Below the pieces are notes generated by a model that saw only the letters and a program-made list of their open reading frames with translations, was not told the origin of the DNA and ran no database searches. A program made the position numbers and the translations under genes. This document shows, piece by piece, positions 3,522 to 9,018 of a stretch of DNA of 39,892 nucleotides. This stretch comes from Chloroflexota bacterium. Its GTDB lineage: Bacteria; Chloroflexota; Dehalococcoidia; Lucifugimonadales; Lucifugimonadaceae. Positions within the stretch are counted from its first letter, which is position 1. Each line of letters starts with the position of its first letter. The stretch covers positions 1 to 39,892 of the forward strand of contig JABIHL010000131.1 in assembly GCA_018649665.1 (NCBI GenBank), read 5' to 3'.

Positions 3522-3549
3522 TTGCTTTTTAGAACAAATGTTCTATTAT
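3522..3549 (+). promoter_or_regulatory. SOS-type promoter with LexA box ahead of imuB
   Basis: TAGAAC-AAAT-GTTCTA (3530-3545) is an inverted repeat with 6-bp arms and a 4-nt spacer. It contains GAAC-N4-GTTC, the core of the LexA box of Bacillus and Actinobacteria. It lies between a candidate -35 TTGCTT (3522-3527) and -10 TATTAT (3544-3549), spaced 16 nt, so a bound repressor would occlude RNA polymerase. The next genes are imuB, a DUF6504-like gene and dnaE2, a classic LexA-regulated cassette. The predicted start of transcription is near 3556, about 170 nt before the first usable ATG. The rest of the 367-nt gap holds no gene that I can see. Confidence 0.72.
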
Positions 3550-3727
3550 TGGTTTCCCTGTCGATATTTCGTTCTTGAAAATCACTTAGGAACGCACCGA
3601 CAGGATTAATAGGCGAACTCGGTTCGTCTCGCACGCAGCGACATATTCCGTGGCGCTGATTGATTCCTTCTACGACCTAATTTCAGGTCGCATCCGCCAT
3701 CACGCAACGCGCCATATAGCTATCTAA

Positions 3728-5221
3728 ATGAGACGACATCCTCCACAAGTTAATTCCCTCACCTCGCAGCCAATCACGCAGCGAGCGATAGGCCAGCGCG
3801 CCACTGCGCAGAAGAGCCATTCATCACCCCAGACAACAAATAACGACCTCTCAGAAAACGCATCCAAGATGCTTGCTTGTTTGCGGATTCCAAATTTCCC
3901 TTGGCAGGTTGAAGTTGCGAGAAAGCCGGAACTGCACGATCAATCAGCGATCATCGCCGGCAAAGCGCTCGACCTTGGCGAAGAACTTATGAACATACCC
4001 AATAGTTCAAGCAAGCCCGGCACAAAAGCAGGGTCAAGATCTTCATCGAAAGCCAGCAACTCGCTTTCAGCACGTGTCGTTCTCGCAGCATCGCCTAATC
4101 TCACCGATGTCATGCCCGGAATGCCGCTTACCGAGGCAACATCACGCCACCGCGGCGTGCTCATCATCGAAGCAGATACTCCGCTTTATGCCCTGGTATT
4201 CGACGAGATCATCGAAAATCTCGAACAACTGGTGCCCGATATCGAAGCTGCTGCTCCGGGTCTCGCATACGTCGGAATCTGGGGACTCGAAAGTCTTTAC
4301 GGAGACGATGCGCATGTCGTCAGACTGCTTGCGGGGGCAGTCGAGGGCTTCGATCTGCGCATCGGAGTTGGCGATAACAAATGGCTTGCTTACGCTGCCT
4401 CGCTTCTGAGTCGCTCGAACAGCGGCAGGAAAGTAACTGGCGAGCCAGGCAGATTCCTCGATCAATTCCCGGTCGACTCGCTTCCGCTCTCCTATCAGCT
4501 CATCAAAAGACTTCACGCTTTCGGACTAACGACGATGGGCCACATCGCCGATATTCCGCGGGGTCCGATGGAGGCGCAGTTCGGGCAGGCTGGCGGCACG
4601 GCGTGGGATTTAGCGAACGGAATTGATCACCGACCACTCATGCCAAAACGAAGCGTACTGGGCGTATCGGAGCATCTGGATTTTCCCGCCCCGACAGCAA
4701 GCATGGCAACTATCGTTCCGGCTATCGAAAGTCTGTTGAATCGTGCATATGGTCGGTCGCAACTTTCACGACGTTTTGCCCGACAGGCGAGCATTCAGTC
4801 GCAGGTTTTCCAGCATGCTCCATGGACGATGAGGGTGGCGTTCAAAGATCCCGCAGGGAACAAAAACCAAGCACTATTCGCAATCAAGTCGAAGCTCGAT
4901 ATGGCTGTAATTCCAGGGCCGCTCGAAGACATGCGCATAACGCTGTCGGGCATTACCGGCGAGGCAGGCAGGCAGGAGTCGATGTGGAAGGAAGTGAAGC
5001 GAGATACTGACCTGCAAGAGACGATTAGCCAGCTTCGATCCCGGCTCAGAGTTGCACCACCTATCTACCAGGTGAGAGAACTCGAGCCATGGTCGAGAAT
5101 CCCAGAGCGCCGATACGCATTGGTCCAGATGAGCAGCTCTGGCGGCGAAGATGCAGATGTGAAGCGCGATCAAGTCGTTCGACGACACCCGGAGCTAACG
5201 GAGGCAAAGAAAGTTGGCTAA
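3728..5221 (+). CDS. imuB: ImuB-like non-catalytic Y-family DNA polymerase
   Basis: Y-family polymerase homologue that acts as an adaptor for DnaE2 in damage-induced mutagenesis. The palm begins at residue 48 (MLACLRIPNFPWQVE). The usual metal-binding Asp of DinB/UmuC is absent there, and the second acidic pair is replaced (GIWGLESLYGDD), so the protein should not polymerise, as is known for ImuB. GDNKWLAYAASL and a helix-hairpin-helix-like segment (LIKRLHAFGLTTMGHIADIP) match the family fold. The first 47 residues are Ser/Thr/Gln-rich and not conserved in style; an alternative start is the ATG at 3869. Neither start has a good RBS. I see no clear clamp-binding motif. It overlaps the next gene by 8 nt. 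Confidence 0.85.
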   Translation: MRRHPPQVNSLTSQPITQRAIGQRATAQKSHSSPQTTNNDLSENASKMLACLRIPNFPWQVEVARKPELHDQSAIIAGKALDLGEELMNIPNSSSKPGTKAGSRSSSKASNSLSARVVLAASPNLTDVMPGMPLTEATSRHRGVLIIEADTPLYALVFDEIIENLEQLVPDIEAAAPGLAYVGIWGLESLYGDDAHVVRLLAGAVEGFDLRIGVGDNKWLAYAASLLSRSNSGRKVTGEPGRFLDQFPVDSLPLSYQLIKRLHAFGLTTMGHIADIPRGPMEAQFGQAGGTAWDLANGIDHRPLMPKRSVLGVSEHLDFPAPTASMATIVPAIESLLNRAYGRSQLSRRFARQASIQSQVFQHAPWTMRVAFKDPAGNKNQALFAIKSKLDMAVIPGPLEDMRITLSGITGEAGRQESMWKEVKRDTDLQETISQLRSRLRVAPPIYQVRELEPWSRIPERRYALVQMSSSGGEDADVKRDQVVRRHPELTEAKKVG

Positions 5222-5624
5222 CACACGCGTCACCAACCCTATTAACTCTGGCGGAATCAAACCGTTAAACGCCCCGCGCACCGTTCACGTTCGTACCGAT
5301 TCAGCGGGCAACCCAACTTCGATCCAAGTTCCACCTGCCATCGGATCACCTCACTCTCGCCGAAAGCGCAGCGGCAACCCACACCCTAGCCCTCTCCCTA
5401 CGAGGGAGAGGGGACATGACCGCCCGCAGGCAACGCTACTTTCCGATGGCAAGTGGATGCTAGTCGCCGAGATAGACGATATATGGAAGGTGAACGACGA
5501 GTGGTGGCGCGGGCCAGATGAGGAGATTGCCAGGCTCTACTACGTACTCCGACTCGAAAGTGGGCAAAAACTAACCATCTACCTCAATCTAGCGACCAAC
5601 ATCTGGTACCGACAGGCAGGCTAG
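5214..5624 (+). CDS. DUF6504-like accessory protein of the ImuB-DnaE2 cassette
   Basis: A 136-residue protein. Its C-terminal part (residues 80-136; DGKWMLVAEIDDIWKVNDEWW, then RLYYVLRLESGQKLTIYLN) resembles DUF6504, a small uncharacterised family found beside imuB/dnaE2 genes. The strand VRTDSAGNPTSIQV (27-39) looks like the N-terminal half of the same domain. Between them lies an about 35-residue insert that includes PHPSPLPTRERG (57-67), encoded by a repetitive extragenic palindrome. Translation starts at TTG 5214, supported by GGAGG at 5200-5204 and an 8-nt overlap with imuB. It probably works with ImuB and DnaE2; its biochemical role is unknown. Confidence 0.72.
   Translation: MANTRVTNPINSGGIKPLNAPRTVHVRTDSAGNPTSIQVPPAIGSPHSRRKRSGNPHPSPLPTRERGHDRPQATLLSDGKWMLVAEIDDIWKVNDEWWRGPDEEIARLYYVLRLESGQKLTIYLNLATNIWYRQAG
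5385..5414 (-). repeat. REP-like palindrome inside the DUF6504-like gene
   Basis: A perfect 10-bp inverted repeat (CCCTCTCCCT at 5390-5399, loop ACG, AGGGAGAGGG at 5403-5412) is flanked by a CTAGGGTG tail when read on the minus strand. The same layout, a GC-rich palindrome plus GCTAGGG-type tail, recurs near 8993, 30724 and 30818. Here it lies in frame within a coding sequence. Confidence 0.75.
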
Positions 5625-5667
5625 TACCAACTAAACGGTCACAACAGGAAACGAATGAGAAACGACT

Positions 5668-8600
5668 GTGAATAGGTCCTTAAAAACGAAGAACGCAACG
5701 AGTAATCATTCGTCCGGAAATCACGAGTCGATTGCCCCCAACAATTCCGCAGAGAACAGCACTACCGCCTACGCCGAACTCCACGCACACAGCAACTACT
5801 CGTTCCAAGAAGGCGCATCAGAAGCGTGGGATTTACTGCTTACCGCCAAGCAGCTAGGACTACACGCCCTCGCTATTACCGATCACGACAACGTAAGCGG
5901 GGTCATGGAATTTGCGCAGGCGGCAAAAGAACTCGGCATCAAGCCAATCATCGGTATCGAACTCACTCTCGCACGTGGACTCGGTGAGCCGGAAGGCATC
6001 GAGTACGAGCCAGCCGATCGACCGCACATAACCCTGCTTGCCGAAACCGCTGTCGGCTATAAAAACATCTCTCTGCTAACCACCCGGGCCCACATCGACG
6101 CCGAAGACCGAAACGACCCGCATCTCGATCCCGCACTCCTTGCCGATCATGCTGAAGGAGTTATCTGTCTTTCCGGGTGCCGAAGGGGTGAGATATCCAA
6201 GCTCGTCTCCAACGGCGATATCGCATCTGCCCAACATACCGCTCAAAAATATACCGAGATTTACGGCAAAGAAAATTTCTTCCTTGAGCTACAGCAAAAC
6301 CTCGTGATGGGCGACGTACAGCGAAACCGAAGCATGGCAGCTATTGCGCGGGAATTAAGAATTGGGATCGTCGCCACAAACAACGCCCACTACCACGTTC
6401 GTGATCGACATCGCCTCAACGACGCACTGGTTGCGATCAAGCACAACAAATCACTCGAAGCGAGCCACCGAGAACGCCGACCCAACGATCAGTTTTTCCT
6501 AAAGTCACCATCCGAAATGGGAATCCTATTCAGTGAGCATCCTGAAGCGATAACGAACACGGTGAAGATCGCCGACCGGTGTGAGTTCGATATCACTTCC
6601 GACGCCATATATGACTTTCCTTCCTATGATTTCCTCCCACCCGGGCATACAGAATCGAGCTACCTAAGGAAGATTTGCGAAGAGGCGGCTGTGCGTCGAT
6701 ACGGCAGCGTGACGCCAGAGGTCACGGCTCGACTCGATAGGGAATTCGATCTTCTCGAAAGGCACGGACTCGTTGGCTTCCTGCTGCAGTACTACGACAT
6801 CATCCGAATTGCCCGCGAAGTGCAGGAAGATCTCGGGCTTGTCGAATCGGGACTCCCAATTGAAGAAAACCCACCGGGTCGAGGTCGAGGCTCGTCGGTC
6901 GCACTCCTAATCGGCTACCTCACTGGGCTATCGCACATCGACCCACTTAAATTCGGACTCAGGCTCGATCGATTTCTTCCAGAAACTGTCGAGGGCGAAA
7001 AGCTGTCTCCGCCCGACATTGATCTCGACTTCCCACGCGAAATCCGTGCCGAGTTAATCCTGCGCATTCACGAACGCTGGGGCTACGAACGCGCCGTGCT
7101 CACTGGGATGATTTCGACATACAAAATCCGTGGAGCCGTGCGTGATTTGGGCAAAGCTTTAGGCATTGCTGAAGACGATCTGGGTCGACTCAACAAGCGA
7201 CTCGACGGTCACAGTTCAATTCCAGCTTTAGCCAAAGAAATGACAGAACTTCCGGAATTCAGAGATAGAGTCGACGCACCCGTTTGGCAGATGCTTATCG
7301 AACTCGCCCAACAGCTAAATCACTTCCCAAAATACCTCGCACAACACCCAGGAGGCATGATCCTCTCGGCACGTCCGCTCTCCGAAACAGTGCCGCTTCA
7401 GCGCAGCGCTATCGATGGTCGGTACATCTGCCAATGGGACAAAAACGCCTCCGAAGACGCCGGATTCGTGAAGATCGACTTCCTAGCGCTCGGGGCGTTA
7501 TCGCAACTTTCAGAGGCACTGGAACTCATTCGAAAACAGACCGAAGAAAGAGTCGATATATCTCGGATCGACTTTGAAGATCACGCCGTCTACACCGACA
7601 TTCACAACGCCGACACCATTGGCGTTTTCCAGATCGAATCGGCAGCACAAATGCAGACGGTCACTCGGCTACGCCCGCGCAATCTAACCGAAATGGCGTG
7701 GGAGGTCGGCGCAGTTCGTCCCGGTGTTGGGGTGAACGACGGTGTGACGCTTTTGATACGTCGTCACATGGGCAAAGATCCCAACTGGAAGTTCGATCAT
7801 CCTCTCGAAGAGCCGGCATTGGGTCGAACCTATGGCGTGCCGCTTTATCAGGATCAACTCGGCGAATTGGCCATGCACGTCGGCGGCATGAGTGCAGTCG
7901 AGGGCGATCAAATGCGCAGGGCGTTCACTCGCAGAAACAACGAACGCCACATCGCCCACTGGAAAGACAAGTTCATCACGGGGGCGCTCGCAAAAGGCGT
8001 TCCACCCGATGCCGCCGAAAAGGTGTTCGGGAAATTTCATGGCATGTACCAATTTCCAGAAGCACACGCCTTCGCATTTGGCGTAACGGCGTACCAAATG
8101 TCGTGGCTCAAGCACTACTGGCCGCTCGAATTTTTCGTTGGCCTATTCAACAACCAGCCAATGGGCTTCTACAATCTCGAAACACTGAAAGAAGACGCTG
8201 TTAGGCACGGGGTCAAAGTACTTGGACCTGACGTTAATCTCAGCGGCAAAAAAGCCGTTATCGAAGATGGCGCGCTGCGGATGGGTTTAACCCATGTGGC
8301 GAAGTTAAACACGGCAACGGCCGTTCCTGTTGTTGAAGAACGAATGGCAAGCGGCGACTTCGTTTCGTTGGCAAATTTCATGTCGAGAACCCGGGTACAA
8401 CAGGAAGTTCTCGATCTTCTCTCGGCAGCAGGCGCGCTCGATCGATTCGACAATATTGCCGACCCCGACCGAATCCCTCCTACTATCGCTGATCGACGTC
8501 ATCTTCGCTGGGAGTCGGGCTTGCGCTATCGACCTCGTGGCGAGAAGAAAGATGGATCACGACAATTGGCGTTCGAAATGCCGGTCGAGCAGGACATGAT

Positions 8601-9018
8601 TGCGCTACCAGGCGAGTCGGGCTGGGATCGGATGATTGGCGAGTACTCCGCCACGGGCGTGTATCCGCAGGGTCACATGATGGAGAAGATCAGGCCGCAT
8701 TTACCTTCAACGGTGATCCGCAGCGAAGAAGTTCGGAACTACGCCAATGGTGATCGAATTTCGGTGGCGGGTCTGGTTATCAGACGTCAGAAGCCGAACG
8801 GCAAGACGGTTTTCATCACGCTTGAAGACGAGTTCGGGCACTCGCCTTTGATCATCTGGCCAACGATGTATCAACGCTTCAAGCAGCAGATCAAAGAGTC
8901 GCTACTACTAGCGACCGGAACGGTCTCCCGACGCGAAGGAACAATGAACATCGTCGTCGAAAACATCACCCCTATTGAGGAGTCGATCCCACAGTTCCCC
9001 TCAAGGGACTGGGGGTAG
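5668..9018 (+). CDS. dnaE2: Error-prone DNA polymerase III alpha subunit DnaE2
   Basis: C-family polymerase that performs translesion synthesis as part of the mutasome. An N-terminal PHP domain begins at residue 34 (YAELHAHSNYSF, His39/His41; TDHD at 71-74). The palm carries the catalytic PDIDLDF at 449-455 (Asp450, Asp452), then fingers and helix-hairpin-helix regions, and a C-terminal OB domain (GDRISVAGLVIRRQKP and following). At 1,116 residues it has DnaE2/DnaE3-like length and lacks the long C-terminus of replicative DnaE1. The start is GTG 5668 with only a weak RBS. The first 33 residues are Asn/Ser-rich and unconserved in style. It lies 43 nt after the accessory gene, almost certainly in the same transcript. 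Confidence 0.92.
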   Translation: MNRSLKTKNATSNHSSGNHESIAPNNSAENSTTAYAELHAHSNYSFQEGASEAWDLLLTAKQLGLHALAITDHDNVSGVMEFAQAAKELGIKPIIGIELTLARGLGEPEGIEYEPADRPHITLLAETAVGYKNISLLTTRAHIDAEDRNDPHLDPALLADHAEGVICLSGCRRGEISKLVSNGDIASAQHTAQKYTEIYGKENFFLELQQNLVMGDVQRNRSMAAIARELRIGIVATNNAHYHVRDRHRLNDALVAIKHNKSLEASHRERRPNDQFFLKSPSEMGILFSEHPEAITNTVKIADRCEFDITSDAIYDFPSYDFLPPGHTESSYLRKICEEAAVRRYGSVTPEVTARLDREFDLLERHGLVGFLLQYYDIIRIAREVQEDLGLVESGLPIEENPPGRGRGSSVALLIGYLTGLSHIDPLKFGLRLDRFLPETVEGEKLSPPDIDLDFPREIRAELILRIHERWGYERAVLTGMISTYKIRGAVRDLGKALGIAEDDLGRLNKRLDGHSSIPALAKEMTELPEFRDRVDAPVWQMLIELAQQLNHFPKYLAQHPGGMILSARPLSETVPLQRSAIDGRYICQWDKNASEDAGFVKIDFLALGALSQLSEALELIRKQTEERVDISRIDFEDHAVYTDIHNADTIGVFQIESAAQMQTVTRLRPRNLTEMAWEVGAVRPGVGVNDGVTLLIRRHMGKDPNWKFDHPLEEPALGRTYGVPLYQDQLGELAMHVGGMSAVEGDQMRRAFTRRNNERHIAHWKDKFITGALAKGVPPDAAEKVFGKFHGMYQFPEAHAFAFGVTAYQMSWLKHYWPLEFFVGLFNNQPMGFYNLETLKEDAVRHGVKVLGPDVNLSGKKAVIEDGALRMGLTHVAKLNTATAVPVVEERMASGDFVSLANFMSRTRVQQEVLDLLSAAGALDRFDNIADPDRIPPTIADRRHLRWESGLRYRPRGEKKDGSRQLAFEMPVEQDMIALPGESGWDRMIGEYSATGVYPQGHMMEKIRPHLPSTVIRSEEVRNYANGDRISVAGLVIRRQKPNGKTVFITLEDEFGHSPLIIWPTMYQRFKQQIKESLLLATGTVSRREGTMNIVVENITPIEESIPQFPSRDWG

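What the first reader, a model, noticed from the sequence alone, without database searches (positions are those of the whole stretch)
3522..9018. SOS-operator-controlled ImuB / DUF6504-like / DnaE2 mutasome without ImuA
The operator TAGAAC-N4-GTTCTA sits exactly between plausible -35 and -10 boxes and precedes a tightly packed imuB, DUF6504-like, dnaE2 set. In most known cassettes a RecA-like ImuA (or ImuA') comes before imuB. Here there is none in the 367 nt upstream, and the middle position is taken by a small DUF6504-like protein. If ImuA is absent from the whole genome, the DUF6504-like protein may be the replacement adaptor.
Basis: partly seen in the sequence, partly recalled or inferred. 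Interest (0 to 1): 0.62.

Follow-up and report, generated by a model that had tools for sequence, protein, structure and literature searches.

The report
SAR202 error-prone polymerase with split ImuB
This is a DNA-damage-controlled error-prone polymerase operon of marine SAR202 bacteria in which the usual scaffold protein ImuB is split into two genes and the usual partner ImuA is missing, probably replaced by RecA; the arrangement is already known in outline from other bacteria, but here its operator and gene order are shown to be conserved across an abundant ocean lineage.

Summary
TAGAACAAATGTTCTA (3530-3545) lies between -35- and -10-like hexamers and precedes a packed set: a catalytically dead Y-family protein, a small ORF and DnaE2, with no ImuA. 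The 16-mer occurs once in the 2.65-Mb genome and is conserved (at most one changed base) at this gene in 14 of 14 same-genus genomes that carry it; related boxes lie before recA and lexA. The genus is that of Candidatus Lucifugimonas marina (SAR202, Chloroflexota). The small ORF is not a new ImuA replacement. It is the C-terminal domain of ImuB (ImuB-C, Pfam name DUF6504) as a separate gene; the Y-family protein ends where ImuB-C begins in ordinary ImuB. In one relative ImuB-C and DnaE2 share one open frame, pointing to DnaE2 as its partner. The Y-family protein keeps a RecA-NT-like and a clamp-like motif, and no ImuA model rises above RecA level in the genome or 60-100 relatives, so RecA most likely takes ImuA's place. 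This matches the published DnaE2X type (PMC6511836, PMC12926913). New here: the SAR202 operator set, wide conservation, a DUF72 gene heading the operon in sister genera, and the fusion. Binding is not shown.

The parts
3522..3549 (+). sigma-70-like promoter: TTGCTT (3522-3527), 16 bp, TATTAT (3544-3549), operator inside
   Evidence: sequence; promoter pattern around the box conserved, better -35 (TTGAC) in sister genera
3530..3545 (.). LexA/SOS operator TAGAACAAATGTTCTA
   Evidence: unique in genome; conserved in all same-genus loci with the gene; related boxes at recA and lexA
3869..5221 (+). iPolY (ImuB lacking its C-terminal domain), catalytically dead Y-family protein, 450 aa
   Evidence: PF00817 1e-9; catalytic D8, D103, E104 replaced by R, G, L; start conserved
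4973..4987 (+). probable beta-clamp-binding motif QESMW (QxxLF/QxxLL in relatives, same place as QLSLL of DinB)
   Evidence: alignment; inference
5003..5077 (+). RecA-NT-like motif DTDLQETISQLRSRLRVAPPIYQVR
   Evidence: best of 361 alignment positions against RecA N-termini of relatives, z 4.5
5214..5624 (+). standalone ImuB-C (DUF6504) gene, 136 aa; conserved parts about 5256-5330 and 5442-5621
   Evidence: hhalign to true ImuB C-termini prob 96, E 4e-9; all-beta core in AF2 model
5390..5412 (.). palindrome CCCTCTCCCTACGAGGGAGAGGG, in frame in the variable linker of ImuB-C
5668..9018 (+). dnaE2, error-prone C-family polymerase, catalytic PDIDLDF at 7012-7032 and VKIDFLALG at 7468-7494
   Evidence: PRK05672 best NCBIfam model, E 3e-237, below its curated cut-off; Pfam PHP/pol3_alpha/finger/OB; tree

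Best explanation
A LexA-repressed translesion-synthesis operon of the DnaE2X (split-ImuB) type. After DNA damage LexA is cleaved and the promoter at 3522-3549 fires. The dead Y-family protein would bind the sliding clamp through QESMW and a RecA protomer through its RecA-NT motif; ImuB-C, made as a separate small protein, would bridge that scaffold to the PHP domain of DnaE2, which does the synthesis past the lesion. RecA would fill the place of ImuA. Shown by sequence: gene content, split point, active-site loss, RecA-NT-like motif, operator, no ImuA model above RecA level. Inferred: all binding, LexA binding, mutagenic activity.
For: Operator conserved at this gene, with related boxes at recA (TAGAACACTTGTGCTA, all same-genus loci scanned) and lexA (AGAACATTAGTGC). 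LexA and RecA present. Middle ORF = ImuB-C: hhalign E 4e-9 to C-termini of true ImuB; an HMM of true ImuB hits many standalone copies. iPolY ends shortly after SRIPERRYAL, where ImuB-C starts in fused ImuB. Active site lost. RecA-NT motif best of 361 positions. No ImuA above RecA level in 100 relatives (NF033429) or 60 (NF058630), including the single-contig L. marina genome; positive controls score 53-222 and 122 bits. iPolY + ImuB-C upstream of dnaE2 in nearly all SAR202/Dehalococcoidia loci with flank and in Thermoleophilia. DnaE2 lies outside the ImuA-associated DnaE2 clade (SH-aLRT 99). One relative has ImuB-C and DnaE2 in one 1277-aa open frame.
Against: The window's own RecA-NT copy is weaker than those of relatives (not among its top two 25-mers). 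The genome is 86% complete and an unusually divergent ImuA could score no better than RecA. No Kyrpidia (type DnaE2X) sequence was in the tree, and the tree is a quick one with long branches. In L. marina and at least three others antisense genes separate ImuB-C from dnaE2 and dnaE2 has no own box, so joint SOS control is not universal in the genus. The module is missing from 5 of 19 same-genus genomes.
Confidence: 0.85

Rival explanations
1. One reading: the DUF6504-like protein is a new adaptor that replaces ImuA.
For: No ImuA found; the small protein sits in the cassette in every relative with flank.
Against: It is the C-terminal domain of ImuB, present also in cassettes that do have ImuA; its core is all-beta, not RecA-like; a natural fusion joins it to DnaE2, not to a RecA-like partner; the RecA-NT motif for a RecA/ImuA partner is still in iPolY.
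Confidence: 0.05
2. iPolY, ImuB-C and DnaE2 work without any RecA-family subunit.
For: The RecA-NT match in the window protein itself is modest.
Against: The motif is conserved family-wide at the right place; in Mycobacterium the ImuB RecA-NT motif is needed for induced mutagenesis (PMC11791113, title and abstract only).
Confidence: 0.06
3. A divergent ImuA was missed (assembly gap or low similarity).
For: MAG 86% complete; alphaproteobacterial ImuA scores only 53-57 bits, close to RecA's 45.
Against: One RecA per genome and otherwise only weaker hits in 100 relatives including a single-contig genome; PF00154 found only RecA and two other ATPase-type ORFs in the own genome.
Confidence: 0.04

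Closest known systems
DnaE2X / iPolY-ImuB-C-DnaE2(-RecA), Kyrpidia tusciae type (Timinskas & Venclovas 2019 PMC6511836; 2026 PMC12926913)
   Same: Inactive PolY with RecA-NT motif, standalone ImuB-C, DnaE2, no ImuA.
   Different: SAR202 Chloroflexota (no word beginning with Chloroflex in the main text of either paper); operator mapped here; DUF72 first gene in sister genera; one ImuB-C-DnaE2 fusion.
ImuA-ImuB-DnaE2 (ImuABC) mutasome
   Same: Dead Y-family scaffold, ImuB-C domain, DnaE2, LexA control.
   Different: No ImuA; ImuB-C is a separate gene; DnaE2 in another clade.
Standalone ImuB-C operons (Aravind 2013 PMC3765255; Geobacter lexA-imuB-C-polY in PMC6511836)
   Same: ImuB-C as a small SOS-linked protein.
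   Different: The Geobacter PolY is apparently active and there is no DnaE2 in that operon.

Membership tests
ImuA-ImuB-DnaE2 mutasome | ImuA (RecA paralogue) present | tested here: not met
   only RecA-level hits; positive controls
ImuA-ImuB-DnaE2 mutasome | ImuB with fused C-terminal ImuB-C domain | tested here: not met
   iPolY ends after SRIPERRYAL plus a short tail; ImuB-C is a separate ORF
DnaE2X (iPolY + ImuB-C + DnaE2 + RecA) | Y-family protein catalytically inactive | tested here: met
   D8, D103, E104 replaced in all iPolY examined; own DinB intact
DnaE2X (iPolY + ImuB-C + DnaE2 + RecA) | standalone ImuB-C next to it | tested here: met
DnaE2X (iPolY + ImuB-C + DnaE2 + RecA) | RecA-NT motif in iPolY | tested here: met
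   (family level); own copy weak
DnaE2X (iPolY + ImuB-C + DnaE2 + RecA) | no ImuA in the genome | tested here: met
   limited by completeness and by the small margin between RecA and divergent ImuA
DnaE2X (iPolY + ImuB-C + DnaE2 + RecA) | DnaE2 falls in the published DnaE2X clade | tested here: inconclusive
   outside the ImuA-associated clade, but no published DnaE2X reference was in the tree
DnaE2X (iPolY + ImuB-C + DnaE2 + RecA) | physical complex with RecA | not testable with these tools
   no complex prediction or experiment available
ImuB-C superfamily (DUF6504) | about 80-residue beta domain with conserved C-terminal Trp and conserved positive residues | tested here: met
   invariant W131 and R107 over 42 proteins; conserved core all strands, one helix only in the variable linker; hhalign
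LexA regulon | lexA present and the same kind of box at lexA/recA | tested here: met
LexA regulon | LexA binds the box and damage induces the operon | not testable with these tools
   needs EMSA and transcript data

The most novel reading that the evidence does not exclude
In SAR202 a four-part mutasome (iPolY, ImuB-C, DnaE2, RecA) preserves the presumed ancestral state of ImuABC, and in sister genera a UV-endonuclease-like DUF72 protein is co-induced as an extra subunit or lesion-handling factor of the same complex.
Probability: 0.2. Interest if true: 0.6.

Novelty: new member of a known kind. Interest (0 to 1): 0.36.

Why it matters
It identifies the small DUF6504-like protein as a split-off ImuB domain, extends the ImuA-less split-ImuB type across SAR202 and other Dehalococcoidia, gives a concrete LexA operator for a lineage with a cultivated, light-inhibited member (Ca. 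Lucifugimonas, PMC10444878), and offers a natural ImuB-C-DnaE2 fusion that makes the ImuB-C/DnaE2 contact testable.

Tried and rejected
PF20114 on the window protein: no hit, resolved by profile-profile comparison. Fold search of the ImuB-C model against PDB: nothing at E<=0.001, in line with PMC12926913. C12 and C160 RecA-profile hits rejected as ImuA: a KaiC-like ATPase ORF and a PriA-like helicase ORF (read by eye). A mixed alignment for folding the ImuB-C-DnaE2 fusion came out misaligned and was dropped; the second structure job was not used. DUF72 remnant in the leaders of the genus: no convincing tblastn hit (best E 0.003 in one genome). Literature search for a Chloroflexi LexA box gave nothing useful. 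Other one-mismatch boxes in the genome (L054-L059) showed no recognisable repair gene by eye; they were not searched against families.

Full report
Observation. The window lies in a 2.65-Mb, 86%-complete genome. At 3522-3549 a TTGCTT-16-TATTAT promoter encloses TAGAACAAATGTTCTA. The 8-base core is expected about once per window by chance, but the full palindrome occurs once in the genome. It is present, with at most one changed base, before the same gene in 14 of 14 same-genus genomes that carry the gene, and in sister genera. In several sister genera the -35 is TTGAC and the -10 TATTAT or similar, with the box in the spacer.

Genes. ORFs follow at 3869-5221, 5214-5624 and 5668-9018. Relatives align from residue 1 or 2 of the 3869 start, so the leader after the box is about 320 nt. 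The first ORF is a Y-family protein (PF00817) in which the catalytic D8, D103 and E104 are R, G and L, whereas the genome's own DinB keeps them. DnaE2 has PHP, palm, finger and OB domains, keeps PDIDLDF, and its best NCBIfam model is error-prone polymerase, below that model's curated cut-off.

Middle ORF. PF20114 (DUF6504) does not score the window protein, but it scores a sister protein (E 6.6e-4) and the C-terminus of true ImuB proteins next to ImuA (E 4e-7 and 4e-3). Profile-profile comparison of 15 middle proteins with 7 true ImuB C-termini gives probability 96, E 4e-9. The first ORF ends shortly after SRIPERRYAL, the point at which ImuB-C begins in fused ImuB. The AF2 model is all-beta in the conserved core with no PDB match. 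In UBA1332 (L145) ImuB-C and DnaE2 are one 1277-aa open frame with a linker of about 40 aa; this is one MAG and could be an assembly error, but it fits the predicted contact between the ImuB beta-barrel and the DnaE2 PHP domain (PMC12926913).

ImuA. In the own genome PF00154 finds RecA, a KaiC-like and a PriA-like ORF. Real ImuA proteins score 53-222 bits, ImuA' 122 bits. The gap to RecA (about 45 bits) is small for alphaproteobacterial ImuA, so a very divergent ImuA is not excluded.

RecA as stand-in. Scoring RecA N-termini against the iPolY alignment puts residues 379-403 first among 361 positions (z 4.5), shortly before PERR. The window copy itself is a weaker match. A QxxLF/QxxMW motif just upstream matches the DinB clamp motif by position (inference).

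Regulon. recA carries TAGAACACTTGTGCTA or a near copy at a nearly fixed distance in all same-genus loci scanned, lexA AGAACATTAGTGC just after a TTGACA-type promoter.

Distribution. Local HMMs on 76 named loci find iPolY and ImuB-C upstream of dnaE2 in nearly all SAR202/Dehalococcoidia loci with enough flank, two other Chloroflexota and many Thermoleophilia, and no ImuA. Gemmatimonadota, Tepidiforma and most Verrucomicrobiota loci have dnaE2 without these neighbours. In a quick tree the ImuA-associated DnaE2s form one branch and ours lies in another.

Variation. Five of 19 same-genus genomes lack the module. In L. marina and others antisense thymidylate-kinase-like and dehydrogenase-like genes (read by eye) separate ImuB-C from dnaE2, and dnaE2 has no own box; in L146 a separated dnaE2 does have one (CAGAACATCCGTTCTA at -118). 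The compact trio of the window is therefore not the rule in the genus. In sister genera a DUF72 gene lies between box and iPolY; DUF72 is absent from all 19 same-genus genomes. PMC11791011 reports DUF72 near polB2 mutasome genes and likens it to UV-damage endonuclease.

Verdict. It works like, and by nearly every feature tested is a member of, the DnaE2X split-ImuB type; placement with published DnaE2X references and the physical complex remain open.

Noticed in passing
L036-L039, L042, L044 (between box and iPolY): DUF72 (UV-endonuclease-like TIM barrel) gene heads the SOS operon in sister genera; no DUF72 anywhere in 19 same-genus genomes.
   Followed up: partly
L145:3391-7221: ImuB-C and DnaE2 in one continuous 1277-aa open frame (UBA1332 MAG).
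   Followed up: partly
L151:3356-5390; L152:3202-5232; L138:4683-5432; L143:4740-5450: Antisense thymidylate-kinase-like and, in some, dehydrogenase-like genes separate ImuB-C from dnaE2; dnaE2 then lacks a box, except in L146 where it has its own.
   Followed up: partly
L138:3489-4466 (G007): The ImuB-C linker holds an in-frame DUF559-like nuclease-like insert flanked by repeat-encoded PNPLPSRERG-type peptides; a similar ORF lies between ImuB-C and dnaE2 in L147. Family read by eye, not searched.
   Followed up: no
window 5390-5412: Palindrome CCCTCTCCCTACGAGGGAGAGGG in frame in the ImuB-C linker; one more such site in the genome (C28).
   Followed up: partly
L151, L152, L138, L141 dnaE2 5' end: DnaE2 has a conserved N-terminal tail (EIEK.LPA.EV.GSPG...DPRYETKSRR) missing from the window copy.
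   Followed up: no
L229 (G000:C101): Own active DinB ends in SEALDAIRERFGSESISRGS, which also resembles a RecA-NT motif.
   Followed up: no
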